A DNA stretch of 64,000 nt, taken from positions 4,318,700-4,382,699 of the forward strand of contig NZ_CP011382.1 in the NCBI RefSeq assembly GCF_000734895.2. Direction: 5' to 3'. Position 1 is the first letter of the stretch; every line of letters begins with the position of its first letter. The position numbers and the translations under genes are program-made. Of this stretch, positions 1,086 to 49,415 are shown piece by piece. The DNA comes from Calothrix sp. 336/3. GTDB lineage: Bacteria; Cyanobacteriota; Cyanobacteriia; Cyanobacteriales; Nostocaceae. The notes below the pieces were generated by a model, which saw only the letters and a list, made by a program, of their open reading frames with translations, was not told where the DNA came from and did no database searches.

Positions 1086-2777
1086 ATGAATGAATCGGAC
1101 ACCCCAAATCATGGGGATTTAATGCAACCCCACAATTCGACTGATGCACCACAAAAGCAACAGGTGAGTTGTCCTTTTTACAATGTACTGCCCAGCGAGA
1201 AACGAATTACTTCTCAAATTCCTCTGTTGTCTCCAGCATCTCAGGAAAATCATCAAATACAGCAATTAGAGTCTTCTGTGGAATCCCCCCACTCAAATAT
1301 CGATATCCAGGAGAACTCAACAATTACTACTCTTGATGTCGAATCTTCCCCTGTTGTGGAGTTATTTCCAAAGGAAGCGCAACAACTAGAATCATCCCCC
1401 GTTGCTGAGTTATTTCCAAAGGAAGCGCAACAAATAGAATCATCCCCCGTTGCTGAGTTATTCCCAGAGAAACCACAACAAATAGAATCTTCCCCAATAT
1501 CGGAATTAACAGGGGAACAAACAACACAATCGGTACAACCACCTGATTGGATTGCTGAACCCGATATTGAGAAACAAAAGTTAATTGACACAGAATTTCA
1601 AAAACTGCTGGAATTAAACCAAGAATTGCAGTCTGCGAATAATAATTTATATACCCAGGTTGCCGAACTTACCTCAGCACTATCAGAATCAGAAAAAACA
1701 TTACAAAAACAAAAACAACGCACTAGTATTGCAGAATCCATACTCAACCAACAAACTCAAGAATTAACTGCTGCGCAAGAACAAATAACCTCTTTGTTCC
1801 AACAGTTGGAAACTGCTTTACAAACCGCCCAACACCAAGAAACATTAGCAGAAACCTATAAAGCTCAGTTAGAACTCAATCAACAACGTTTAGCCCAATT
1901 AGAGCGGGAATGTAGCCTATTACAAACCAAATATAGCGAACAATCCCATCAGTTAATGCAGTCAGAAAACTCTTGCCGAGAATTGCGTACACGTTTAATG
2001 CGGCAACAACGCCAAACTTTGCAATTTAAAGCAGCTTTAGAAAAGTGTTTGGAAACCTCTGTACCTGGGGAAGAGACTACAGATACGACATCAGCTTTTA
2101 GCGACAATATCCAGAAAAAAAGATATTCCCAACTCCACACTTCCCTCATCTCCCATGCTCAACCCATTAAACCCTGGTCAAAATCACTAGAGTTTAGTGA
2201 TGATGAGTTAGAAAACCCTTGGGATGAACCTATCATACCTGCAAATTCCCCAACATCAGCAACGACAGACTTGACAGAAATTGCGAAAAAATTTGTTCCT
2301 AACTCGGAAGTTAAAGAACCAGCATCTGCCAATGTTGATAGTCATACCAAACAACCAGAAAATTTGGGAGAACAACTAGAAAATGTGATTCAGATGTTTT
2401 TTGCTCATCAAAATACATCCATTCCATCCCAACCACCAACTCTCCATACTCCAGTAACTGACACCCAAGAATTTAACCAAGAAATAGTACCAATTTGGGA
2501 AACTTTTTCCACTCCTCTGCATGATGAAGAGGAAGAAGAAACCCTGATTACAACTACTATTAACGTGGAGACAAACCCTCCCCAGTCAACGGATTTCTGG
2601 CTGGAAGTTTCGCAGTTATCACAACCGGAAGCATCCACACCAGAGACTCAGCAGTCATTTGAGGTGGAAGAGACTGCCAACAATTCTCCCTCGCCACTGA
2701 TTTATCCGCAACGTCAATCCAGGGGACGTAAAACACTGGCAGCAGTAGAGTTACCGAATTTCCGCAAAAATGGGTAA
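1086..2777 (+). CDS. Coiled-coil protein with internal 16-residue repeats, function unknown
   Basis: A hydrophilic protein of 563 residues without signal peptide or membrane segment. Residues about 86-142 consist of three and a half copies of a 16-residue unit (consensus ESSPVAELFPKEAQQI). Residues about 160-320 are Gln/Glu/Leu-rich with heptad spacing, so a long coiled coil is likely. The C-terminal third is acidic and Ser/Thr/Pro-rich, then turns basic at the very end (RQSRGRKT...FRKNG). GTG at 1083 directly precedes the ATG at 1086; I chose the ATG. The stop lies 1 base from the convergent stop of the cyclase gene. A scaffold or cytoskeleton-like role would fit, but nothing in the sequence proves it. 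Confidence 0.75.
   Translation: MNESDTPNHGDLMQPHNSTDAPQKQQVSCPFYNVLPSEKRITSQIPLLSPASQENHQIQQLESSVESPHSNIDIQENSTITTLDVESSPVVELFPKEAQQLESSPVAELFPKEAQQIESSPVAELFPEKPQQIESSPISELTGEQTTQSVQPPDWIAEPDIEKQKLIDTEFQKLLELNQELQSANNNLYTQVAELTSALSESEKTLQKQKQRTSIAESILNQQTQELTAAQEQITSLFQQLETALQTAQHQETLAETYKAQLELNQQRLAQLERECSLLQTKYSEQSHQLMQSENSCRELRTRLMRQQRQTLQFKAALEKCLETSVPGEETTDTTSAFSDNIQKKRYSQLHTSLISHAQPIKPWSKSLEFSDDELENPWDEPIIPANSPTSATTDLTEIAKKFVPNSEVKEPASANVDSHTKQPENLGEQLENVIQMFFAHQNTSIPSQPPTLHTPVTDTQEFNQEIVPIWETFSTPLHDEEEEETLITTTINVETNPPQSTDFWLEVSQLSQPEASTPETQQSFEVEETANNSPSPLIYPQRQSRGRKTLAAVELPNFRKNG
1341..1511 (+). repeat. 48-bp in-frame tandem repeat, about 3.5 copies
   Basis: Successive 48-base units encode ESSPV(V/A)ELFPKEAQQ(L/I), then a copy with EKPQQ, then a decayed half copy ESSPISEL. 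Copies differ by a few bases only, so the array is likely to expand and contract by slippage or recombination. Confidence 0.85.
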
Positions 2778-10335: not shown

Positions 10336-10778
10336 ATGAAGCTGGGAAATTTTACTGCCTGACTAAAAGCAACAGCAATTCCATAAAAAATTAAATATTT
10401 TAATTGGTGATTGGGAGACTTTCAGATTTCACAGATGAGGATAACAATATTCCTTACTCCTACCCCGTATCCTCACTTTTTACTATTCCACCAATAAAAT
10501 TTTGACTGGTAAATTAACCTTACTCCTTACTCCTTCCTCCTTCCTTCTTACTCCTTCCTCCTTCCTCCTTACCCCTACATGTCTAAAAATTCTAATCTGC
10601 TGAAATTCTCACTTGATAAATTAGCAGTATAGATATTTACCTATTCTCCAGCTAGAAAACCATAATTCTCCATGGCATTCTATAGATATCTTGGAGACAG
10701 ATATCGTTGCAATTTAGTTTAGGATCTAGTAGAGAAACTTTGAGATAAATATTTTGCAGTTGCAAGGGGTTTACAGCT
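10336..10778 (+). other. Intergenic region between psb34 and the NifU-like gene
   Basis: No gene seen. It contains a pyrimidine tract (10518-10575) and AT-rich sequence leading to the nfu start. Confidence 0.5.
10518..10575 (+). repeat. Pyrimidine-rich simple repeat
   Basis: About 58 bases made almost only of TTACTCC, TTCCTCC and close variants. It is the low-complexity type that grows by slippage in cyanobacterial spacers. Confidence 0.7.
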
Positions 10779-13862: not shown

Positions 13863-14933
13863 ATGAATTCTTTTCCTCAAAACGTATCAAGCTTTCACGC
13901 GGATATTCTCCAGAATACTCAGTTGGGACAATTGTGTGGTCAAGGAAATTTATTCCGCGATCGCTACGAAATCATCCGTATCATCGGTAGAGGTGGTTTT
14001 GGTGTGACATTCCTTGCTAAAGACGCGGTTTTGCCTGGAAATCCTCTGTGCGTGATAAAACAGCTATGTCCGAAAACTACTAATCCGAAAAGCTGGGAAC
14101 GTGCCAGTAAACGTTTTGTACAAGAAGCAAAAATTCTTGGTCAGTTGGGAAGTCATTCTCAAATACCAATGCTACTTGACTATTTTGAAACCAATGGCGA
14201 CTTTTATTTAGTTCAAGAATATATTCGTGGCACAACCATTGCCAGGGAAGTACGCCGTCATGGCTATAAAAAAGAAGCTGATGTCAAGCAATTTCTCTGG
14301 GAGATTCTACCAGTTTTACAATATGTCCATAAGCATCACGTTATCCATCGTGACATCAAACCACAAAATCTCCTGCGTTGCGAAGATGATGGGCGTTTAG
14401 TACTCATCGATTTTGGTGCAGTCAAAGAAGAATTAATCAATATCTCTACAAATCAGCCAGAAAAAACAGCTAGTACCCATTTTGTCGGTACCATGGGTTT
14501 TGCTCCCCCAGAACAATTTTCCCTACGTCCAGTTTATGCCAGTGATATTTACGCCATTGGTGTCACCTGTTTGTATTTGCTCACAGGTAAAGCTCCCTTG
14601 GAATTTGAGCATCACCATGAAACTGGAGAAATACTCTGGCAAAAACATATAGAAGTCAGTGAGGCTTTCGCACCCGTGTTGAGCAAAATGCTGAGTATGT
14701 CCCTCAAGGATAGGTTTAAATCAGCAGAAGATGTTATGTGGGCTTTAGGTATGGAATCACACATACCCAGTCTGACAGACTGCCTTGCGACTCAGAGATT
14801 AGCTAGCAATCCAATTAATACTGAGTCCGATTATTTGTCCCCCGTTGCTCGCACAGCTAGCGCCATTCGGGAATGGAAAAGCAAATTAAAATCTAGAAAA
14901 AATTACAACCGATTAATTCATCCTCATTATTAG
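13863..14933 (+). CDS. Serine/threonine protein kinase
   Basis: A 356-residue Hanks-type kinase without membrane segment. The kinase core spans residues about 38-300: glycine loop IGRGGFGVTF, catalytic lysine in CVIKQL, Glu in the following helix (FVQEAKIL), catalytic loop HRDIKPQNLL, magnesium loop DFGAVKE and GFAPPEQF in place of APE. All key residues are present, so it should be active. The C-terminal 55 residues are basic (REWKSKLKSRKN) and have no known domain. It lies ahead of a second kinase carrying WD40 repeats, separated by 364 bases, so separate promoters are likely. Substrate unknown. Confidence 0.9.
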   Translation: MNSFPQNVSSFHADILQNTQLGQLCGQGNLFRDRYEIIRIIGRGGFGVTFLAKDAVLPGNPLCVIKQLCPKTTNPKSWERASKRFVQEAKILGQLGSHSQIPMLLDYFETNGDFYLVQEYIRGTTIAREVRRHGYKKEADVKQFLWEILPVLQYVHKHHVIHRDIKPQNLLRCEDDGRLVLIDFGAVKEELINISTNQPEKTASTHFVGTMGFAPPEQFSLRPVYASDIYAIGVTCLYLLTGKAPLEFEHHHETGEILWQKHIEVSEAFAPVLSKMLSMSLKDRFKSAEDVMWALGMESHIPSLTDCLATQRLASNPINTESDYLSPVARTASAIREWKSKLKSRKNYNRLIHPHY

Positions 14934-15297
14934 GTATCAAATTAACAGTTTTTGAATTCCAATTATCTCTAAGACAACTCATAAACATGGGATTCAAGAT
15001 ATTTTATTTATTAGCAAAGGCGATAAATAATACTTCTATTTTGTTGAGTTGATCACAATTAGTTATCCACATCTCAAACCAGGGAAAAGCGAGTCATCAG
15101 AAAGACAGAAACTTTTCTCTGGTCTTTTGTATAATAGGGAAATCTTCCTTTCCAGGAATTATCCAGGGCAAATTATATCGATATGGGTAATTGGTGAGCG
15201 GTAATTAGTAATCGCAACAACTAATCACCAAAATATTATTTACCCGAAAACCAAATGATATTGAGTATAAAATAATCACGCAGTCCCGCTTCTTTTG
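14934..15297 (+). other. Intergenic region with a possible promoter element
   Basis: A 364-base spacer. TATAAT at 15130-15135 is a perfect -10 box, but no good -35 box stands at the right distance. Near 15190-15235, TTGGTGA and ATTAGT are answered by an inverted ACTAATCACCAA. No gene seen. Confidence 0.4.
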
Positions 15298-17319
15298 ATG
15301 ATGATCTGCTGCCTAAATCCTGATTGCCCACACCCTTTAAATCCTGATGGTGAAAAAAATTGCCGAACTTGCAGTACTCCCCTCGTTCCCTTGCTGCGAA
15401 ATCGCTTCCGCGTGATTCAGGTACTTTCTGATGAGGGGGGATTTGGTAGAACTTATTTAGCTGAGGATATAGATAAGTTAAATGAGCGTTGTGTAATTAA
15501 ACAATTGGCACCCAAAGTCCAAGAAAATTGGGCAATGGCAAAGGCAATTGAATTATTCCACAAGGAAGCACAAAGATTGCAACAACTAGGAGAGCACCCG
15601 CAAATTCCTACTTTATTTGCCTATTTTGAGCAAGATAATTATCTATATTTAGTTCAGCAGTTTATTGATGGACATAATCTTTTAAAGGAATGGCAACAAA
15701 AAAAAAGGTATAGTTCCCGTGAAATCCAAGAAATCCTCTTAGATTTATTACCCGTTTTGAAGTTTATTCATGAAAGGGGTGTAATTCACCGCGATATTAA
15801 ACCTCAAAATATTATTCGCCGCAAAAGTGATGGGCGTTTATGCTTAATTGATTTTGGCTCTTCCAAACAATTGACAGCCAGAGTTCAATTTAAGATGGGT
15901 ACTTCTATCGGTTCCCATGGATATTCTCCCATTGAGCAAATTCGTGATGGCAAAGCCTATCCAGCAAGTGATTTATTTAGTTTGGGTGCAACTTGTTTTC
16001 ACCTGCTAACAGGCACTTCTCCTTTTCAGTTATGGACGGAACATGGCTATAGTTGGGTGAAAAATTGGCGCCAATTTTTGAAGAATCCGCCCAGTGATGA
16101 GATACTCTTTTTGCTAGATAAGCTCTTAAGAAAAGATATTCATCAGCGTTATCAATCTGCCGACCAAGTTTTAAAAGATTTAGCAAAAAAACGCCATCTC
16201 CCGTTAAAACAGAGCAATGTTGGAGAGATTCCTCCACCTACTCAATCCTCATCTGTTTCTAGAAAATATGCACTTCTTCGGAATTTTTTCTTAATTGGTT
16301 CGGCAATCTTATTATTAGTGCTGGGAGAATTTTTCTATCGTCAGTCTCAACAAATGGAGAGTTTTGTCTCTTCTAGTGTGAGTCGGGGCACAAAGCCAGG
16401 TGATATCCTGAATCAATCTCATAATCAGACGATTGGTAATTTTCAGTTAATGAGAACGTGGAAATTATCAGGAAAATCGATTTCTGCCATGGCTATTAGT
16501 CCTAATGGTCAGACGGTGATGAGCAATAGTGATGACAATATTAAACTTTGGAGTGTCGCCACAGGACAGGAAATCAGTGTTTTCAGTGGACATCGTAACC
16601 GAGTCAATGCTTTAGTTGTCAGTCCCGATGGTCAAGTTTTGGTCAGTGGTAGTACCGACAGAACAGTGAAGTTGTGGAATTTAGCCCGGGGTAGGGAAAT
16701 ACGGACTCTAGAAGGTCATTTAGACTCGATTACGACTTTGGCAATTAGTCCTGATGGCAAGATGATTGCCGATGGAAGTAACGATAAAACTGTGAGAATT
16801 TGGAATTTAGCTACAGGGGAGGTGATGCGGACTTTTATAGGACATTCTGCTGAAGTCTCATCAGTAGTTTTTAGTCCTAATAGTTTTTTGTTTGCCACTG
16901 CTAGTGCGGATAAAACCATTAAAATTTGGAATTTCGCCACCGGTAAACAAATTTATAATTTAGTTGGACATTCTGCTGGAGTTACATCCTTAGCAATTAG
17001 TCCTGATGGCAAAATATTAGCTAGTGGTAGCAGCGATCGCACAATTCGACTCTGGAATCTGGCAACTGGTAAACAAATTCGTTCCCTAAACACCTCTGCT
17101 GAAGTGAAGTCTATTAGCTTTAGCCCCCATGGGCAAATTCTCGCTAGTGGGGGGGATGATGCCAAAATTCAACTGTGGAATCCCACCAGTGGAGAAAAAC
17201 TATACACATTGGTAGGTCATTTAGGTACTGTTAACGCTGTAATCTTTAGTGAGGATGGTAAAACCCTGATCAGTGGTAGTCAAGACTCAACAATCAGGAT
17301 TTGGCAGGTAGTTAATTAA
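15298..17319 (+). CDS. Zinc-ribbon / Ser-Thr kinase / WD40 membrane protein
   Basis: A protein of about 673 residues in four parts. Residues 1-30 form a zinc ribbon (CCLNPDC..CRTCSTPL). Residues about 38-300 are a Hanks-type kinase with CVIKQL, HRDIKPQNII, DFGSSKQ and GYSPIEQ; the glycine loop reads LSDEGGFGRTY, so its first glycine is replaced, which relatives of this cyanobacterial type may tolerate. One membrane span follows at about 330-348 (FFLIGSAILLLVLGEFFY). The last 280 residues carry seven WD40 repeats, a full propeller, presumably outside the cytoplasm or in the lumen. ATG codons at 15298 and 15301 are adjacent; TTG at 15295 is also in frame. No clear ribosome site. It probably senses a ligand with the propeller and signals inside. 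Confidence 0.9.
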   Translation: MMICCLNPDCPHPLNPDGEKNCRTCSTPLVPLLRNRFRVIQVLSDEGGFGRTYLAEDIDKLNERCVIKQLAPKVQENWAMAKAIELFHKEAQRLQQLGEHPQIPTLFAYFEQDNYLYLVQQFIDGHNLLKEWQQKKRYSSREIQEILLDLLPVLKFIHERGVIHRDIKPQNIIRRKSDGRLCLIDFGSSKQLTARVQFKMGTSIGSHGYSPIEQIRDGKAYPASDLFSLGATCFHLLTGTSPFQLWTEHGYSWVKNWRQFLKNPPSDEILFLLDKLLRKDIHQRYQSADQVLKDLAKKRHLPLKQSNVGEIPPPTQSSSVSRKYALLRNFFLIGSAILLLVLGEFFYRQSQQMESFVSSSVSRGTKPGDILNQSHNQTIGNFQLMRTWKLSGKSISAMAISPNGQTVMSNSDDNIKLWSVATGQEISVFSGHRNRVNALVVSPDGQVLVSGSTDRTVKLWNLARGREIRTLEGHLDSITTLAISPDGKMIADGSNDKTVRIWNLATGEVMRTFIGHSAEVSSVVFSPNSFLFATASADKTIKIWNFATGKQIYNLVGHSAGVTSLAISPDGKILASGSSDRTIRLWNLATGKQIRSLNTSAEVKSISFSPHGQILASGGDDAKIQLWNPTSGEKLYTLVGHLGTVNAVIFSEDGKTLISGSQDSTIRIWQVVN

Positions 17320-17714
17320 TTTTGATTTTTTTGTCATGACAAACAAATGTTAAAAAAATACCGGAGATTCTGGAAAATTACTGTTCAAATGAGTAGATGT
17401 TTCTATGAACTATGGAAAAAATCTGCTGCCACCTGACCCACTGTATCTAATTACACTTACTAGGGATGCACTAGACCTCTTGCAAAACATAGATTTTTGT
17501 CAGATAGAGAAAGAGACAAAGTTCAAATCTCCAGGTTTTACGGTTCCTTTCTCCTGACTTCTGCAAGCAGTCTCAGACGTTTCTAAACTTTGGAAACAGT
17601 CTATTACCAGGATTTTTGCAAAAAATCCGAAAAGTCAAGACCAAAATTTGTATCACTGCATAACAGTTGGGCATTTGCGTAGTCTGCAATACCTGTAAAA
17701 AGGATTGAGAAACA
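17320..17714 (+). other. Intergenic region carrying a 101-bp inverted-repeat element
   Basis: A 395-base spacer between the kinase-WD40 gene and the WD40 gene. It holds the element at 17473-17573; no other feature was seen. Confidence 0.5.
17473..17573 (-). mobile_element. 101-bp MITE-like element, copy 1
   Basis: The ends AGACCTCTTGCA and TGCAAGCAGTCT are imperfect inverted repeats (10 of 12). A second 101-base copy in the opposite orientation lies at 55978-56078. The two share their ends and the words TTGCAGAAGTC and TTGAACTTTG, but differ in the middle. There is no coding capacity, so this is a non-autonomous element or a dispersed hairpin. Confidence 0.6.
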
Positions 17715-18746
17715 ATGAAAGTATTAACGGGTGCGGTAATTGCGATTTTGGGATTTGGGGGGATGTGGTATTGGCAATCACCTCCAGCAGTTACGAGTGT
17801 ATCTTCTGGGAAATCTCAATTAGTTGCAACTAAACCGTGGCAAAATTATCAAGCGGCTCACACACTCAAAGGACACACAGACTCAGTGTGGGCGATCGCT
17901 ATCAGTCCCGATGGTCAAACGATTGCTTCTGTGAGTGGCGATCACACAGTTAAACTATGGAATGTGGGGACAGGAAAGCTGATTCGCACTTTCACAGGTC
18001 ATACACAGTCAATTAATGCTGTGGCAATTAGTCCCAATGGTCGAATTTTAGCCTCAGCCAGTGCGGATAATACGGTGAAGTTGTGGGATGTCGCCACGGG
18101 GAAAGAAATACGTACCTTAGAAGGACATATTGCTTCTGTTCAATCCGTTGCTTTTGCTCAGGATGGAGCTACCCTCGCAAGTGGAAGTTGGGATCAGAGG
18201 ATGAAACTCTGGAACGTAGAAACAGGAAAAGAAATCCGCACCCTCAAGGGAGATTGTCAAATTGTGGATGCGATCGCCATTAGTCCCGATGGTAAAACCC
18301 TAGCAAGTACGAATCATTTTGAGAATGAAGTCCAATTATGGAGCTTGGTAACAGGGACAAAAACTCAAACCCTCAAAGGACATGAAAACGTAATTCATGA
18401 TGTCATCTTTAGTCCCGACGGTAAAAGTATTGCCACTGCTAGCTCAGATAAAACAGTTAAAATTTGGAATGCAGAAACTGCCAAAGAGATTCGCACCCTT
18501 GTGGGACATCATAATCGAGTTTGGTCATTAGCTTTTAGCCCAGATAGCCAAAACTTAGTCACAGGTAGCTGGGATAAAACAATTAAAATTTGGAATCTAG
18601 AAAATGGGAAAGAAATGCATACTCTCAAAGGACATACTAACCGTGTCTGGTCTGTAGCTTTTAGCCCGGATGGTAAGACAATTGCTAGTAGTAGTTTTGA
18701 CCAAAGTATTAAAATTTGGCAAGCTGCTCCCCCAACCAAAAGTTAA
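17715..18746 (+). CDS. Membrane-anchored WD40 repeat protein
   Basis: A 343-residue protein. Residues 1-20 form a hydrophobic anchor or signal (VLTGAVIAILGFGGMWYW). From about residue 50 to the end there are seven WD40 repeats, each with the pattern SPDGKTIAS...D.T(V/I)K(L/I)W and closing GH dipeptides; repeat four lacks part of the pattern (NHFENEVQLW). Seven blades make a complete propeller that should bind a protein or peptide. The repeats closely resemble those of the preceding kinase, so one may derive from the other by duplication. No enzymatic domain. AGGA lies 11 bases ahead of the ATG. Confidence 0.88.
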   Translation: MKVLTGAVIAILGFGGMWYWQSPPAVTSVSSGKSQLVATKPWQNYQAAHTLKGHTDSVWAIAISPDGQTIASVSGDHTVKLWNVGTGKLIRTFTGHTQSINAVAISPNGRILASASADNTVKLWDVATGKEIRTLEGHIASVQSVAFAQDGATLASGSWDQRMKLWNVETGKEIRTLKGDCQIVDAIAISPDGKTLASTNHFENEVQLWSLVTGTKTQTLKGHENVIHDVIFSPDGKSIATASSDKTVKIWNAETAKEIRTLVGHHNRVWSLAFSPDSQNLVTGSWDKTIKIWNLENGKEMHTLKGHTNRVWSVAFSPDGKTIASSSFDQSIKIWQAAPPTKS

Positions 18747-20594: not shown

Positions 20595-21665
20595 ATGAAT
20601 TCAAAAGAAGCGCTGGATTTTATAAATACGCTTTTGGTAGAAAAATCTCAAGTTGTTTTAAATGACTTGGAAACAAAAATATTTGTCGGTTGCTGGGAAG
20701 GAAAAGAATATAAAGATATTGCAGCAAATACTTCTTTTACCGAGCAGTATTTACGTTCTATCGGCTCGCAACTTTTCAAAAAAATAAAAGATGAATTAGG
20801 GATAAAAGTTAGTAAAAAAAATTTTATAAGTCCCATCGAGTATAAATATCAGCAATTAAAGAATTCTCCGAATACATTAAGTAATATAAATATTACCGAA
20901 CCGCAGCCGCAATCTAATTTACAACCATCAAACTCGCATTCATTACCTGTAAACAACGGAAATTTTAACCCATTTCAGCCAACGAGCGGACGAATTAGAG
21001 AATCGCAATTTTTCTTTGCGAGAAATCATGATATTCAAGAGATATTCGATATTTTGAACAGTGGTAGTAGTATTGTTTTAATTGGGGAAGAGGGAATTGG
21101 TAAATCTTCTCTATTGGCAGCGATTTGTCGAGAAGCAAATAGTTATTTCATTTCCCAACGTCAGGCAGTTTTTATCGATTTGAATGATGTTGACAGCGAG
21201 GAAGAATTTTATAGCACTCTGTGCCATGAAATCGGGATAGAAGATTGTGTGGGGCAGATGTTAACTCGAAATTTACGAAAATATAAAATCTTATTAGCTT
21301 TAGATAATGTTGGTAAAATGGTATGTGATGGATTTACTCGCAATTTGCGCGATAAATTACGCAGTTGGGCAGAAGGAGGTGAACCATTAAAATTGGTTTT
21401 GGCAGCCCATGAATCTTTAAATGATTTATTCAATGATAACGAAGGAAGAACCTCTCCCCTTGCAGGTGTTTGTATGCCCAAACAGATATTACCGTGGGAT
21501 GAAAGTGAGATGCGGGAGTTTATTCAAGAAAAATTAAACTTAACCAGGGTTGCATTTAGCGAGGAGGAAATTGTGGGGATAATTAATTCCACGAGAGGAC
21601 ATCCGAGACAGTTGATGCAATTATGCGATCGCCTTTATCGAGAGAAGATGAATTTTTCGTCCTAG
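20595..21665 (+). CDS. HTH-ATPase with vMAP-type N-terminus (STAND-like)
   Basis: A 356-residue protein. Residues about 15-75 look like the HTH domain found at the N-terminus of cyanobacterial vWA-MoxR-associated signalling proteins (LNDLETKIF..EGKEYKDIA). A Ser/Asn/Pro-rich linker follows. Residues 138-350 are a P-loop ATPase: entry motif FFARNHDIQEIF, Walker A GEEGIGKSS, Walker B ILLALDN, and the downstream motif RGHPRQLMQLCDRLY. This layout recalls STAND-type switch ATPases, but no repeat sensor or effector is attached. The next gene, 154 bases downstream on the same strand, is a second ATPase, so the two may act together. No signal or membrane segment. Confidence 0.78.
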   Translation: MNSKEALDFINTLLVEKSQVVLNDLETKIFVGCWEGKEYKDIAANTSFTEQYLRSIGSQLFKKIKDELGIKVSKKNFISPIEYKYQQLKNSPNTLSNINITEPQPQSNLQPSNSHSLPVNNGNFNPFQPTSGRIRESQFFFARNHDIQEIFDILNSGSSIVLIGEEGIGKSSLLAAICREANSYFISQRQAVFIDLNDVDSEEEFYSTLCHEIGIEDCVGQMLTRNLRKYKILLALDNVGKMVCDGFTRNLRDKLRSWAEGGEPLKLVLAAHESLNDLFNDNEGRTSPLAGVCMPKQILPWDESEMREFIQEKLNLTRVAFSEEEIVGIINSTRGHPRQLMQLCDRLYREKMNFSS

Positions 21666-21819: not shown

Positions 21820-24582
21820 ATGAGCAAAACACCTGTACCGCGATTAGATTTAGCACCAAAGCTGGAGCGTCCACTGTCGCTGTTGAATCCCCTTGATTAT
21901 TTGCGGTTGTTGTATTGGGTGTTTTATTTTCCCCAGGCTTTGCGGTGGTATGTGGAGAATTTTGCCAAAGAAGAAGTCCGGTTGGAAAAGAGGAATGGGG
22001 TAAATTTATGGGTTTGGTTGCGGGAAAATCCCATTCAACGCAATCTATGGTTTCAAGGTTTATTACTTACTCTTGTTGCACCCGTAATTATTGCTGCCAT
22101 ATTTCAACAAATTGGTTTTCATGTTGATTGGTTTGGCGTGGCTTTAGGCGTGGCTTTAGGCGTGGCTTTTGGCGTGGCTTTAGGCGTGGCAGGAGGCGTG
22201 GCTTTTGGCGTGGCAGGAGGCGTGGCTTTTGGCGTGGCAGGAGGCGTGGCTTTTGGCGTGGCTTTTGGCGTGGCAGTCGGCGTGGCAGGACGCGTGGCAG
22301 GACGCGTGGCAGGAGGCGCGGCTTTTAGCGTGGCTTTAGGCGTGGCAGTCGGCGTGACTTTAGGCGTGACTTTAGGCGTGACTTTAGGCGTGGCTTTTGG
22401 CGTGGCAGGAGGCGTGGCAGGAGGCATGGCAGGAGTCGTGGCTTTAGGCGTGGCAGTCGGCGTGGCAGTCGGTGTGGCTTTTGGCGTGGCAGGAGGCGTG
22501 GCAGTCGGCGTGGTTATTCTGCGCCTGGAAAGCTGGTTTTTTGGGATATTTACAAATTTTCGATCGAGCCAAAATCCAAATTCACTATCCCGTATTACCC
22601 CGATTCCCCTACCTTCTCTGTCTCGGCATATAAATACATGGTTGCAAGAAGATTTAGAAATTGGTTTATACAATATCAATCAACTACTTGCCCATACTTT
22701 GCAATTTATTCCCGTCGTCAAAGTAGTTAATCGACAACTTGCCAGAACACCACTGGAACAAATTATTTGGTATACCTCTAAATTTGCTGAAAACCCTTTT
22801 GATTGGAAATTAATCTATGTTGCATCTGCTTCGTTAAATGCCAATATCCGGCAAGAGTTTATTAAAAAATTCTTCGATTTCCCGTTCTTTTTTTTTCTAC
22901 GCAGTTTAAACAATAGACTTTTACATCAAATTAATACTGATATTCGCCTCGACACTCCACCCCACGCGACAGCAGCAGGATTCTGGTATCTCCACGAAAA
23001 ACAACCGATCGCAGCAATACAAGCCTTTGCAGTAGTCCGATCGCTCCCCTATGGTGAGGAAATGTATACCCTCGCTTATACCCTAGCAATATCCCAGCGA
23101 ACCAAAGATTTGAGCGCGATCGCCAATATCAACACCGAAACCCGAAATTTCCCCTTACCCGATACTCCCTTACTTCGTCCCGATACCTGGCAAGCAATAA
23201 ACTCCCTCGATCGTGTTGTTGCTGATGCCAAAGTTATCCAAAACAGCACTTCCCGCGCTTCCCGTGCTTTTGCCCTCAACCGTGCAATTGGCGAACTCCT
23301 ACAAATCATCGATAATCCCACAACTATCCCAGAAGCGGAACGGGGTTTAATTGTCGATATTGCCAAGAATTGGAAAAGTATCCTCGAAAAACAAGCGCTG
23401 GAAGTGGGACAGGTGGAAATCACCAAACCCGTGACCAATCCCTACATTGTCGGCGACCCGGTTGAGGGAGAATTATTTGTGGGACGGGATGATATTATGC
23501 GGCAACTCGAAGAATTGTGGCTGATGGGAACCAATATGCAATCTGTGGTTCTCTACGGACATCGACGCATGGGAAAAACTTCGATTTTGCGGAATTTATC
23601 CCCCCGATTGGGTGCAGGGGTAAAGGTTGCCTACGTTAACTTGCTGGGTGTGGGTGGTGCTTCCCAGGAAGGTGAGGTTTTGATGGCAATTAGCGATGCC
23701 ATTTCCCACATCATGGACATCGAACCACCCAAGGACGAAGATTTATTAAATTTACCCGAACCTACTTTCAACCGCTACTTACAAAAAATCATCCAAAAAA
23801 TTATTAACGAAGATAGTTCTCCAGCACGGGGATTGATTATTGCTCTGGATGAATTTGAAATCATCGAAGAATTAATCAGTGCAGGAAAAATCCCCCAAAG
23901 TTTCATGGGATATCTTCGCAGTTTAGTACAGATGAGTCCCAAAATTGGATTTATCTTGGCTGGTTTGCATACCCTGGAAGAAATGACCGCAGATTATTTC
24001 CAACCTTTATATGCCAGCTTTACCCCACCCATTAAAGTTAGTTTTATGGAATCTGGTGATGCTGACGTAATTTTAACCAATCCTGGTATCGATGATTTTC
24101 CCCTCGACTATACCCCCGCAGCGCGCGATCGCGTTTATCACTACACCTACGGACAACCGTTTTTGTTGCAATTAGTCGGGTTTCAGTTGGTGCGAAACTA
24201 TAACGATAGGGTTTTTCGCATGGGACAAAAGCTCGATCCCCTCTTTACCCTGGATGATGTGGAAGCAGTAATCAACGACTCGGCATTTTTCCAAGGAGGT
24301 AGTTTTTATTTTGAAGGTGTGTGGAATCAAGCTAGGGAAGGAGACGCGGGACAGCAGGATTTTTTACAACAGGACATACTACAAGCTCTTGCTCCCCATC
24401 AAGAGGGTTTGGATTTGGATAGTTTGGTTGGGAATTTGGAATTTGATAGAGAAACCACCGAAGCAGCTTTGAAAACTTTGGTTCGTCACGATGTTGTGGT
24501 GGAAAAACACGGTAAATGGTTAATTGTCGTCGAGCTATTCCGACTGTGGGTACTAGGACTTAGATATCAACAGAAAATGTGA
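21820..24582 (+). CDS. Membrane AAA-like ATPase with 32 tandem GVAx tetrapeptides
   Basis: A 920-residue protein. Residues 1-75 are a polar N-terminal region (LSLLNPLDYLRLLYWVFYFP). A hydrophobic stretch follows at about 75-100, then residues 106-233 are 32 tandem tetrapeptides of the form Gly-Val-Ala-x (x mostly Leu, Phe, Val or Gly), which should form glycine-zipper membrane helices. Residues 240-560 are helical and without a recognised domain. Residues about 561-790 are an AAA-like ATPase: NPYIVGDPV..LFVGRD entry, Walker A YGHRRMGKTS, Walker B GLIIALDEFE. The last 70 residues look like a winged helix (ILQALAPHQEGLDLDSL...). Probably a membrane-tethered switch protein paired with the preceding ATPase. 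Function unknown; family members occur in filamentous cyanobacteria. Confidence 0.82.
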   Translation: MSKTPVPRLDLAPKLERPLSLLNPLDYLRLLYWVFYFPQALRWYVENFAKEEVRLEKRNGVNLWVWLRENPIQRNLWFQGLLLTLVAPVIIAAIFQQIGFHVDWFGVALGVALGVAFGVALGVAGGVAFGVAGGVAFGVAGGVAFGVAFGVAVGVAGRVAGRVAGGAAFSVALGVAVGVTLGVTLGVTLGVAFGVAGGVAGGMAGVVALGVAVGVAVGVAFGVAGGVAVGVVILRLESWFFGIFTNFRSSQNPNSLSRITPIPLPSLSRHINTWLQEDLEIGLYNINQLLAHTLQFIPVVKVVNRQLARTPLEQIIWYTSKFAENPFDWKLIYVASASLNANIRQEFIKKFFDFPFFFFLRSLNNRLLHQINTDIRLDTPPHATAAGFWYLHEKQPIAAIQAFAVVRSLPYGEEMYTLAYTLAISQRTKDLSAIANINTETRNFPLPDTPLLRPDTWQAINSLDRVVADAKVIQNSTSRASRAFALNRAIGELLQIIDNPTTIPEAERGLIVDIAKNWKSILEKQALEVGQVEITKPVTNPYIVGDPVEGELFVGRDDIMRQLEELWLMGTNMQSVVLYGHRRMGKTSILRNLSPRLGAGVKVAYVNLLGVGGASQEGEVLMAISDAISHIMDIEPPKDEDLLNLPEPTFNRYLQKIIQKIINEDSSPARGLIIALDEFEIIEELISAGKIPQSFMGYLRSLVQMSPKIGFILAGLHTLEEMTADYFQPLYASFTPPIKVSFMESGDADVILTNPGIDDFPLDYTPAARDRVYHYTYGQPFLLQLVGFQLVRNYNDRVFRMGQKLDPLFTLDDVEAVINDSAFFQGGSFYFEGVWNQAREGDAGQQDFLQQDILQALAPHQEGLDLDSLVGNLEFDRETTEAALKTLVRHDVVVEKHGKWLIVVELFRLWVLGLRYQQKM
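22135..22518 (+). repeat. 12-bp tandem repeat array, 32 units, coding for GVAx
   Basis: Each 12-base unit is GGCGTGGC plus one of TTTA, TTTT, AGGA or AGTC, with few exceptions (RVAG, GAAF, SVAL, GVTL, GMAG, VVAL). The high identity at silent positions shows recent expansion, and some units occur in longer blocks such as alternating GVAF-GVAG. Confidence 0.95.
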
Positions 24583-49291: not shown

Positions 49292-49326
49292 AATTGCGAA
49301 TTGCGAATTGCGAATTGCGAATTGTG
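49292..49326 (+). repeat. Short tandem repeat, five heptamers
   Basis: Four copies of AATTGCG and one AATTGTG in tandem. Heptanucleotide repeats of this kind (STRR) are typical of heterocyst-forming cyanobacteria. Confidence 0.8.
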
Positions 49327-49415
49327 AATTGGTATGATATGGCATTTTGGTGATATTTTCTACTGTGACTGCGAGATAATCTCAACCAGACTGTGGAAGT
49401 AGAAATAACTATAGA

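What the first reader, a model, noticed from the sequence alone, without database searches (positions are those of the whole stretch)
22135..22518. 32 tandem GVAx tetrapeptides from a 12-bp DNA repeat
The 12-base units are nearly identical at the DNA level, including silent positions, and encode a strict G-V-A-x periodicity of 128 residues. Gly every four residues favours packed membrane helices (glycine zipper), so the array could be a membrane pore or oligomerisation zone whose length changes by slippage. A repeat of this size inside an ATPase is a candidate contingency (phase or length variable) locus; every unit is 12 bases, so the frame is kept whatever the copy number.
Basis: partly seen in the sequence, partly recalled or inferred. 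Interest (0 to 1): 0.62.

Follow-up and report, generated by a model that had tools for sequence, protein, structure and literature searches.

The report
Repeat-built membrane domain in immune-like ATPase
A cyanobacterial protein appears to span the membrane with a chain of near-identical four-residue units whose number differs widely between related species, and its gene sits beside a second ATPase gene of the kind found in predicted bacterial self-defence systems.

Summary
The array is real: 32 in-frame 12-bp units at 22135-22518, residues 106-233 of a 920-aa protein; 'strict GVAx' is overstated (22 of 32 units read GVA). It precedes an ATPase domain. It is hydrophobic (2 charged residues in 128) and modelled, at low confidence, as five helices. 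Relatives occur across cyanobacteria and in a few Chloroflexota and Methanothrix records; in the same place they carry arrays of about 5-36 units, decayed arrays or non-repeat hydrophobic sequence. Among 57 array-bearing pairs at least 85% identical elsewhere, this region differs by a median of 28 residues, against 1 for the rest. A second STAND-like ATPase gene lies upstream in 73 of 77 loci, downstream in 0 of 76; its N-terminus varies among TIR, trypsin, caspase, CHAT and unnamed domains, as in predicted prokaryotic conflict systems. The unit's silent sites (GGC-GTG-GCG) change more slowly than silent sites outside. Best reading: a repeat-built, length-variable membrane domain of a two-gene NLR-like module. 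A pore, a defence role and variation within one culture are not shown.

The parts
20595..21665 (+). partner gene: 356-aa AAA/STAND-like ATPase with an unnamed N-terminal domain (HTH-like by eye); first gene of the two-gene module
   Evidence: AAA_22 E 2.9e-11 and nSTAND1 E 8.7e-7; homologue upstream of the family gene in 73 of 77 loci
21820..24582 (+). 920-aa membrane ATPase gene that carries the array
   Evidence: ORF; homologues of the same layout
21820..22026 (+). conserved N-terminal segment (residues 1-69)
   Evidence: many invariant columns in 53 sequences; model helices 24-36, 39-48, 60-69
22030..22110 (+). first predicted transmembrane helix (residues 71-97)
   Evidence: helix 71-97 in the model; hydropathy windows from residue 75
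22135..22518 (+). the array: 32 units of 12 bp encoding (G-V-A-x)n, residues 106-233
22519..23469 (+). conserved helical middle region, begins LRLESW (residues 234-550)
   Evidence: alignments A1, A2, A4; model helices
23476..23946 (+). AAA+/STAND-type ATPase domain (residues 553-709)
   Evidence: ATPase_2 E 3.6e-6, below its gathering score; Foldseek best hit 2qen E 9.7e-8, then archaeal ORC2
23557..23583 (+). Walker A, GHRRMGKTS (residues 580-588)
   Evidence: all residues invariant or at least 90% conserved in 53 sequences
23845..23859 (+). Walker B, LDEFE (residues 676-680)
   Evidence: D677 E678 F679 E680 invariant in 53 sequences
24364..24519 (+). C-terminal winged-HTH-like segment (residues 849-900)
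   Evidence: weak GntR/IclR/HTH_Cmi2_C matches only, E 0.12-0.25

Best explanation
The array is the membrane domain of a STAND/ORC-type ATPase that works with the ATPase encoded just upstream. Shown: it is an in-frame array of 12-bp units; it is hydrophobic; orthologues carry arrays of other lengths, decayed arrays, or ordinary hydrophobic sequence in the same place; the upstream partner gene is nearly always present and its N-terminal domain is exchanged as in predicted prokaryotic conflict systems. Inferred: 32 units form about five membrane helices packed through their small residues; the partner or a cell stress triggers ATP-dependent assembly of the C-terminal ATPases; assembly rearranges or opens the membrane part and damages or signals through the membrane, in the manner of plant NLR resistosomes. 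Units are gained and lost by slippage or unequal recombination in steps of four residues, so frame is kept while helix number or length changes. Preferential amplification of units that match their neighbours would keep the unit's DNA consensus, silent sites included, constant over long times.
For: Hydropathy: 77% of 19-residue windows starting inside the array pass 1.6 on the Kyte-Doolittle scale, none of those starting at residues 1-70 or from 251 on; 2 charged residues in 128. Model: helices 71-97, 104-129, 131-155, 161-184, 189-209, 214-234. A non-repeat orthologue is also modelled with several long helices in that place, at low confidence. Length: 57 array-array pairs at or above 85% identity, median difference 28 residues in this region against 1 elsewhere; 48 of 57 differ by 8 or more, 22 of 57 by 40 or more (pairs not independent). 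Partner: upstream in 73 of 77 loci, downstream in 0 of 76; coding ends overlap in 24 of the 73, and 5 of the 73 lie more than 450 bases away. Partner N-termini: CHAT 5, TIR 4, trypsin 4, caspase 1 of 55 scanned. The window partner's N-terminal domain also heads a NACHT protein and two AAA_35 proteins in the same genome. Fold: archaeal STAND-like ATPase 2qen and ORC2 lead the hits; the NRC4 resistosome ranks third but superposes poorly. Family specificity: the exact three-unit DNA was found in 16 of 148 genomes of the order, own included; the one locus examined in each lies in this ATPase family (three sub-clades, by eye), in the GVA frame.
Against: pLDDT is 32-60 over residues 111-240, so helix number and topology are not established. 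No experiment links this pair to defence or cell death; PADLOC matches are weak and cover only the ATPase parts (best 1.7e-5 and, for the partner, 6.8e-7). The window's own partner has no recognised effector enzyme. A passive anchor would explain the hydrophobicity as well as a pore would. Regions of 31-43 residues (L144, L180, and L077 in a 3-contig assembly) leave room for one or two helices in the array, hard to square with a fixed channel.
Confidence: 0.55

Rival explanations
1. Passive membrane filler. The array only anchors the ATPase to the membrane; any hydrophobic stretch above a minimum length will do, and copy number drifts without functional effect.
For: The region runs from 31 to 193 residues among 76 of 77 rows, 314 in one; array and non-array forms interchange about 10-11 times on a quick tree (crude label); array and non-array forms are joined at 83-85% identity (L120/L136, L110/L058).
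Against: Most versions are long (median 132 residues in 70 array proteins, 153 in 23 others), more than an anchor needs. Silent sites are conserved, which plain drift does not predict.
Confidence: 0.3
2. Contingency locus. Slippage changes the unit number within a population and so tunes or switches the protein.
For: Length differs between close species; discrete unit variants in mosaic order suggest repeated duplication; one orthologue has a frame switch inside the array.
Against: Whole-unit changes keep frame, so no on/off switch follows from copy number. Units within the window's array vary at positions 9-12, which should lower slippage. The closest array-bearing pairs compared are different species; no within-species data were available.
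Confidence: 0.15
3. Selection on the nucleic acid. The repeat DNA or RNA has a role of its own (for example in translation rate or recombination), which keeps GGC-GTG-GCG constant; the protein is secondary.
For: Dominant codons change 5, 2 and 8 times on the tree for Gly, Val, Ala against means of 13.9, 13.0, 13.4 at conserved columns outside. GGC dominates in 39 of 46 arrays against 18% use outside. The choice is place-specific (GGC/GTG at places 1/2, mostly GGA/GTA at place 4), so it is not simple GC bias.
Against: Some arrays use other codons (GGT-GTA-GCA in L066, GGA-GTT-GCC in L161). In the 16 loci examined the array is in one frame and one protein family. Homology-dependent amplification could give the same constancy without selection. 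Among close pairs there is no clear excess for Gly and Ala.
Confidence: 0.1
4. Assembly artefact. The length differences come from repeats collapsed in short-read assemblies.
For: Arrays of several hundred bases of 12-bp units are hard to assemble from short reads; many genomes are drafts or bins.
Against: Three relatives at 90-91% identity in assemblies of 6-10 contigs (L082, L084, L087) measure 71, 135 and 143 residues, and L077 in a 3-contig assembly 39. Three paralogues in the window's own 4-contig genome differ too (32 units, 11 units, and an array in two blocks).
Confidence: 0.05

Closest known systems
EAD/STAND conflict systems of multicellular prokaryotes (Kaur et al. 2020, PMC7159879; 2021, PMC8195603)
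   Same: A STAND-type NTPase core; an N-terminus exchanged among adaptor, TIR, trypsin and caspase domains; an N-terminal domain shared by several systems of a genome.
   Different: Here the second gene is a constant membrane ATPase whose membrane domain is often a simple-repeat array. I did not see this pair in section 7 of PMC8195603 or in the passages read of both papers; their source tables were not available. Whether either protein falls in the Npun2340/2341 (MNS-clade) family named there was not tested (one search found only that paper).
nSTAND2 two-gene system (PMC8195603, passages of section 15)
   Same: Two adjacent genes, each with a STAND-type NTPase.
   Different: There one NTPase is described as eroded and fused mostly to GT4 or HEPN effectors. 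Here NTP-binding motifs are kept in both proteins, and GT4/HEPN are not among the 25 families listed for the partners.
EACC1 membrane-associated two-gene system (PMC7159879, passage of section 33)
   Same: Two genes; a membrane segment with a patch of small residues, often glycine.
   Different: In the passage seen: one conserved TM segment and a constant caspase domain; no array and no paired ATPases.
Plant NLR resistosome (NRC4, 9cc9)
   Same: STAND-type ATPase with an N-terminal membrane-active part (recalled); third Foldseek hit, E 2.8e-7.
   Different: 13% identity, poor overall superposition (rmsd 26.9, TM-score 0.27-0.29). Resistosomes insert an N-terminal domain on activation (recalled), whereas this protein looks permanently membrane-embedded.
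Archaeal STAND-like ATPase 2qen (ATPase_2 type)
   Same: Best fold match of the ATPase part, TM-score 0.71 by target.
   Different: 350-residue chain; no counterpart of the membrane array.
Glycine-zipper membrane proteins
   Same: Gly every fourth residue, hydrophobic between.
   Different: Zippers are short motifs (recalled); here about 128 residues are built of the motif and are a DNA tandem repeat.

Membership tests
STAND/ORC-type AAA+ ATPase | Walker A and Walker B motifs | tested here: met
   GHRRMGKTS and DEFE, invariant or at least 90% conserved in 53 sequences
STAND/ORC-type AAA+ ATPase | fold like archaeal STAND/ORC ATPases | tested here: met
   2qen, ORC2 and 2fna among the first five Foldseek hits
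STAND/ORC-type AAA+ ATPase | C-terminal winged helix | tested here: inconclusive
   only weak HTH-family matches, E 0.12-0.25; helices and a strand pair in the model there
STAND/ORC-type AAA+ ATPase | hhGRExE-like motif before Walker A (motif recalled) | tested here: met
   FVGRDD in the window, FVGREDI in the consensus
STAND/ORC-type AAA+ ATPase | curated Pfam family score | tested here: not met
   membrane protein: ATPase_2 27.4 bits against 33.2, AAA_16 25.6 against 32.6. The partner passes for AAA_22 and nSTAND1. So it works like a STAND ATPase; no curated family claims it
Prokaryotic EAD/STAND conflict system | effector or adaptor domains displaced in an otherwise constant context | tested here: met
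   TIR 4, trypsin 4, CHAT 5, caspase 1 of 55 partners scanned, beside a constant second gene
Prokaryotic EAD/STAND conflict system | N-terminal domain shared with other NTPase genes of the genome | tested here: met
   window partner residues 1-91 match five loci, itself included: two array modules, a NACHT protein and two AAA_35 proteins. Identity with a published EAD not tested
Prokaryotic EAD/STAND conflict system | protection against phage or induced cell death | not testable with these tools
   needs experiments; PADLOC matches weak
nSTAND2 two-gene system | one of the two NTPases with eroded NTP-binding motifs | tested here: not met
   window: GHRRMGKTS/LDEFE and GEEGIGKSS/LDNVG; motifs conserved in 53 membrane proteins; G169 and D237 invariant, K170 at least 90% in 55 partners
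Glycine-zipper membrane oligomer | repeated GxxxG in a hydrophobic helix | tested here: met
   sequence; helices in the model at low confidence
Glycine-zipper membrane oligomer | oligomerisation through the glycine face | not testable with these tools
   only single-chain prediction available
Contingency (length-variable) locus | copy number differs between close relatives | tested here: met
   48 of 57 pairs at or above 85% identity differ by 8 or more residues
Contingency (length-variable) locus | copy number changes within a clonal population with a phenotype | not testable with these tools
   no strains of one species, no reads

The most novel reading that the evidence does not exclude
A bacterial NLR-like immune module whose membrane effector is written as a DNA tandem repeat. 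Gain and loss of 12-bp units changes the number of membrane helices in steps without breaking the frame, giving a fast-evolving, length-tunable pore. The repeat DNA is itself held constant, silent sites included, because only matching units are amplified. It would be the membrane counterpart of retroelement-driven sensor diversification in the same class of systems.
Probability: 0.2. Interest if true: 0.82.

Novelty: new variant of a known kind. Interest (0 to 1): 0.6.

Why it matters
Membrane domains with several helices are normally non-repetitive at DNA level (general knowledge). Here orthologues carry, in the same place, either ordinary hydrophobic sequence or a simple tetrapeptide array, so evolution has exchanged the two several times. 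That makes it testable how little sequence information a membrane domain needs, and whether array length tunes activity. The genetic context ties it to bacterial relatives of NLR immunity. The slow change of silent sites offers a test of how tandem arrays keep their consensus.

Tried and rejected
Single-gene ATPase with an odd insertion: rejected, since the array has a fixed place and a near-constant upstream partner. GC-biased conversion as cause of the silent-site conservation: not sufficient, since place 4 mostly has A-ending codons for Gly (GGA 143 of 199), Val (GTA 110 of 206), Leu, Ile and Arg, though Phe leans to TTC (232 of 405). Genome-wide mobile repeat: rejected; in the own genome the forward-strand matches all fall in three genes of this family, and the three minus-strand near-matches lie opposite another ORF; in each of the 16 genomes with the exact pattern the one locus examined is in this family too (further loci of those genomes were not examined). 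Named solved relative by sequence: none (one chance hit at E 0.78). Plasmid-borne copies: none in the plasmid collection at E 1e-60. The 186-codon antisense ORF over the array (22119-22679) is taken as a by-product of the repeat, untested. Papers: searches with the array strings, tetrapeptide repeat/glycine zipper/cyanobacteria, EAD/STAND/conflict systems, 12-bp intragenic repeats, STAND/transmembrane effector and low-complexity membrane repeats gave listings in which I saw neither this array nor this gene pair. Only open-access full text is searched, and only three papers were opened.

Rows dropped before counts. Left out: two full-length array members missed by my motif search (L101, L147; seen) and seven with short, split or unrecognised reading frames (L152, L156, L173, L174, L175, L178, L179); also L054, L057, L060 (same records as named loci) and L059. 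Ten of 62 further loci gave no full-length protein; 93 unique proteins remained of 131. The partner count uses another set: 82 loci, of which 77 had at least 1.4 kb upstream and 76 at least 1.4 kb downstream. For the family scan of partners I gave 55 of 69 upstream ORFs found, leaving out 14, mostly short or without a P-loop. The array/none label is crude: L144, a true short array, counts as 'none', and some weak arrays count as 'array'. Pairs are not independent. The tree was a quick one with long branches, the window's among them. Result against my reading: among the 55 pairs at or above 75% identity the same-codon rate is not higher in the array for Gly (0.66 against 0.73) and equal for Ala (0.75 against 0.74); only Val is higher (0.84 against 0.71). 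The excess appears at larger distances.
Full report
OBSERVATION. The window holds 32 tandem 12-bp units at 22135-22518, in frame in an ORF of 920 codons (21820-24582), as residues 106-233. Positions 1-8 of the unit (GGCGTGGC) agree in 29-32 of 32 units; the tail varies among a few forms. 22 of 32 units read GVA exactly. Place-specific codons (GTG at place 2, GTC at place 4; GGC at place 1, GGA at place 4) show that units multiplied as DNA.

ANATOMY. The protein has a conserved N-terminal segment, a first predicted membrane helix (residues 71-97), the array, a conserved helical middle region starting LRLESW, and a C-terminal AAA+ domain with Walker A GHRRMGKTS and Walker B LDEFE. Pfam matches to ATPase_2 (E 3.6e-6) and AAA_16 (E 2e-5) are below the curated cut-offs. 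Foldseek puts the archaeal STAND-like ATPase 2qen first (E 9.7e-8, TM-score 0.71 by target), archaeal ORC2 next, and the plant NRC4 resistosome third, the last with poor superposition (rmsd 26.9).

MEMBRANE NATURE. 77% of 19-residue windows starting inside the array pass a Kyte-Doolittle mean of 1.6; none do among those starting at residues 1-70 or from 251 on. AlphaFold2 with 53 sequences models the array as helices 104-129, 131-155, 161-184, 189-209 and 214-234, but at pLDDT 32-60 over residues 111-240, so helix count and packing are not established. In a non-repeat orthologue (L165) the same region is also modelled as several long helices, mostly at pLDDT below 50. Five array helices after the first helix would put N- and C-termini on one side; this is inference.

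RELATIVES. 126 of 192 genomes drawn from the family hold a match to the post-array part at E 1e-40 or better. A named scan kept 80 loci of 131; 76 have cyanobacterial titles, two are Methanothrix bins (L153, L162) and two Chloroflexota (L167, L174). In 46 of 77 compared loci there are 8 or more exact GVA units; others have decayed arrays or ordinary hydrophobic sequence, for example L149, L160, L165, L170. The largest count of G-V-x-type units was 36, the smallest clear array 5. The array/none label needs 11 changes on a quick tree of 77 rows, at least 10 by its starred branches (crude label, see Tried and rejected). The window's genome has two more array-bearing paralogues, at G000:C1:2774628 and 5865319. 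An exact three-unit DNA pattern occurs in 16 of 148 genomes of the order, own included; the one locus examined in each of the 16 lies in this ATPase family and in the GVA frame.

LENGTH VARIATION. Among 93 unique full-length proteins, 57 array-array pairs are at least 85% identical after the array. Their middle region differs by a median of 28 residues (0 in 3 pairs, 8 or more in 48, 40 or more in 22); the post-array part differs by a median of 1 (8 or more in 9, 40 or more in 1). Only four none-none pairs exist (median difference 3), too few for a contrast. Examples: L104/L124, 91% identical, 135 against 82 residues; L132/L145, 92%, 116 against 67. Draft assemblies may collapse repeats, but L082, L084 and L087, in assemblies of 6-10 contigs, also differ: 71, 135, 143; L077, in a 3-contig assembly, has 39. 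Variation within a species or culture could not be tested.

PARTNER GENE. The gene at 20595-21665 encodes a 356-aa ATPase (AAA_22 E 2.9e-11, nSTAND1 E 8.7e-7). A homologue of its ATPase part lies upstream in 73 of 77 eligible loci and downstream in 0 of 76; coding ends overlap in 24 of the 73, and in 5 of the 73 the match lies more than 450 bases away. Of 55 partners scanned, AAA_22 matches 54 and nSTAND1 52; N-terminal CHAT matches 5, TIR_2 4, Trypsin_2 4, caspase 1. Most other N-termini are not named by Pfam; some look HTH-like by eye. The window partner's N-terminal 91 residues also match, in the same genome, a NACHT protein (NACHT E 5.2e-16) and two AAA_35 proteins, one with a GGDEF domain. 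Repeated displacement of effectors in a preserved context is given as a mark of conflict systems in PMC7159879 (passages read); PMC8195603 (section 7 read whole, other passages by search) describes STAND systems with exchanged EAD, TIR, caspase and trypsin N-termini. PMC10907252 (passages read) describes retroelements that diversify sensors of such systems.

SILENT SITES. In 46 arrays the dominant codons are GGC (39), GTG (43) and GCG (34), against mean use outside the array of 18%, 28% and 15%. On the tree, dominant codons of 51 array rows need 5 (Gly), 2 (Val) and 8 (Ala) changes. Conserved Gly, Val and Ala columns outside need means of 13.9 (15 columns), 13.0 (12) and 13.4 (17); 0, 0 and 2 columns are as low. 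A consensus over many units is smoother than a single codon, which favours the array somewhat; but drift to the usual codons would give GGT or GGA, not GGC. Between distant pairs (below 60% identity) the same codon is used in 48-64% of array comparisons against 31-33% outside; among pairs at or above 75% identity there is no excess for Gly and Ala. Place 4 mostly has A-ending codons, Phe excepted, so GC bias alone fails. I favour homology-dependent amplification of matching units; selection on the nucleic acid is not excluded.

MECHANISM. Shown: an in-frame repeat, hydrophobic, in a fixed place before a STAND/ORC-type ATPase, replaceable by non-repeat hydrophobic sequence, variable in length between species, beside a second STAND-like ATPase with exchanged N-termini. 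Inferred: a membrane domain of several helices gated by ATPase assembly with the partner, acting on the membrane in a defence or suicide response. The main rival is a passive anchor whose length drifts.

NOVELTY. The parts are known kinds: STAND ATPases, conflict-type two-gene modules, in-frame tandem repeats. A membrane domain built of a simple tandem repeat in such a module was not seen in the open-access searches made. I file it as a new variant of a known kind.

Noticed in passing
L248:1247-3691 (- strand; another contig of the same genome): A NACHT protein (814 aa; NACHT E 5.2e-16) sharing the partner's N-terminal domain carries its own tandem array, 6 bp x 46.5 copies at L248:1587-1865, inside its ORF, encoding an Ala-x dipeptide tract: a second short-unit array in a STAND protein of this genome.
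   Followed up: partly
L156: In Hyella patelloides the reading frame switches inside the array; the downstream part continues in another frame. Decay, assembly error or off-state cannot be told apart.
   Followed up: partly
L173: In a Microcoleus vaginatus bin the N-terminal segment and the ATPase share a 594-codon frame in which no array motif was found.
   Followed up: no
L153, L162: Two Methanothrix (archaeal) bins carry the same two-gene pair, L162 with a caspase-type partner N-terminus; transfer or mis-binning not resolved.
   Followed up: no
window 22119-22679 (-): The opposite strand of the array is open for 186 codons and reads as a Thr-Pro-rich repeat; taken as a by-product.
   Followed up: no
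window 1341-1495: 48-bp tandem repeat, 3.2 copies, 89% matches; the unit is a multiple of three, frame not checked.
   Followed up: no
window 10518-10576 and 49292-49331: Heptanucleotide tandem repeats (8.4 and 5.7 copies), a repeat type common in cyanobacterial genomes (recalled).
   Followed up: no
window 13863-18746: Three successive genes: a protein kinase, a protein kinase with WD40 repeats, and a WD40-repeat protein.
   Followed up: partly
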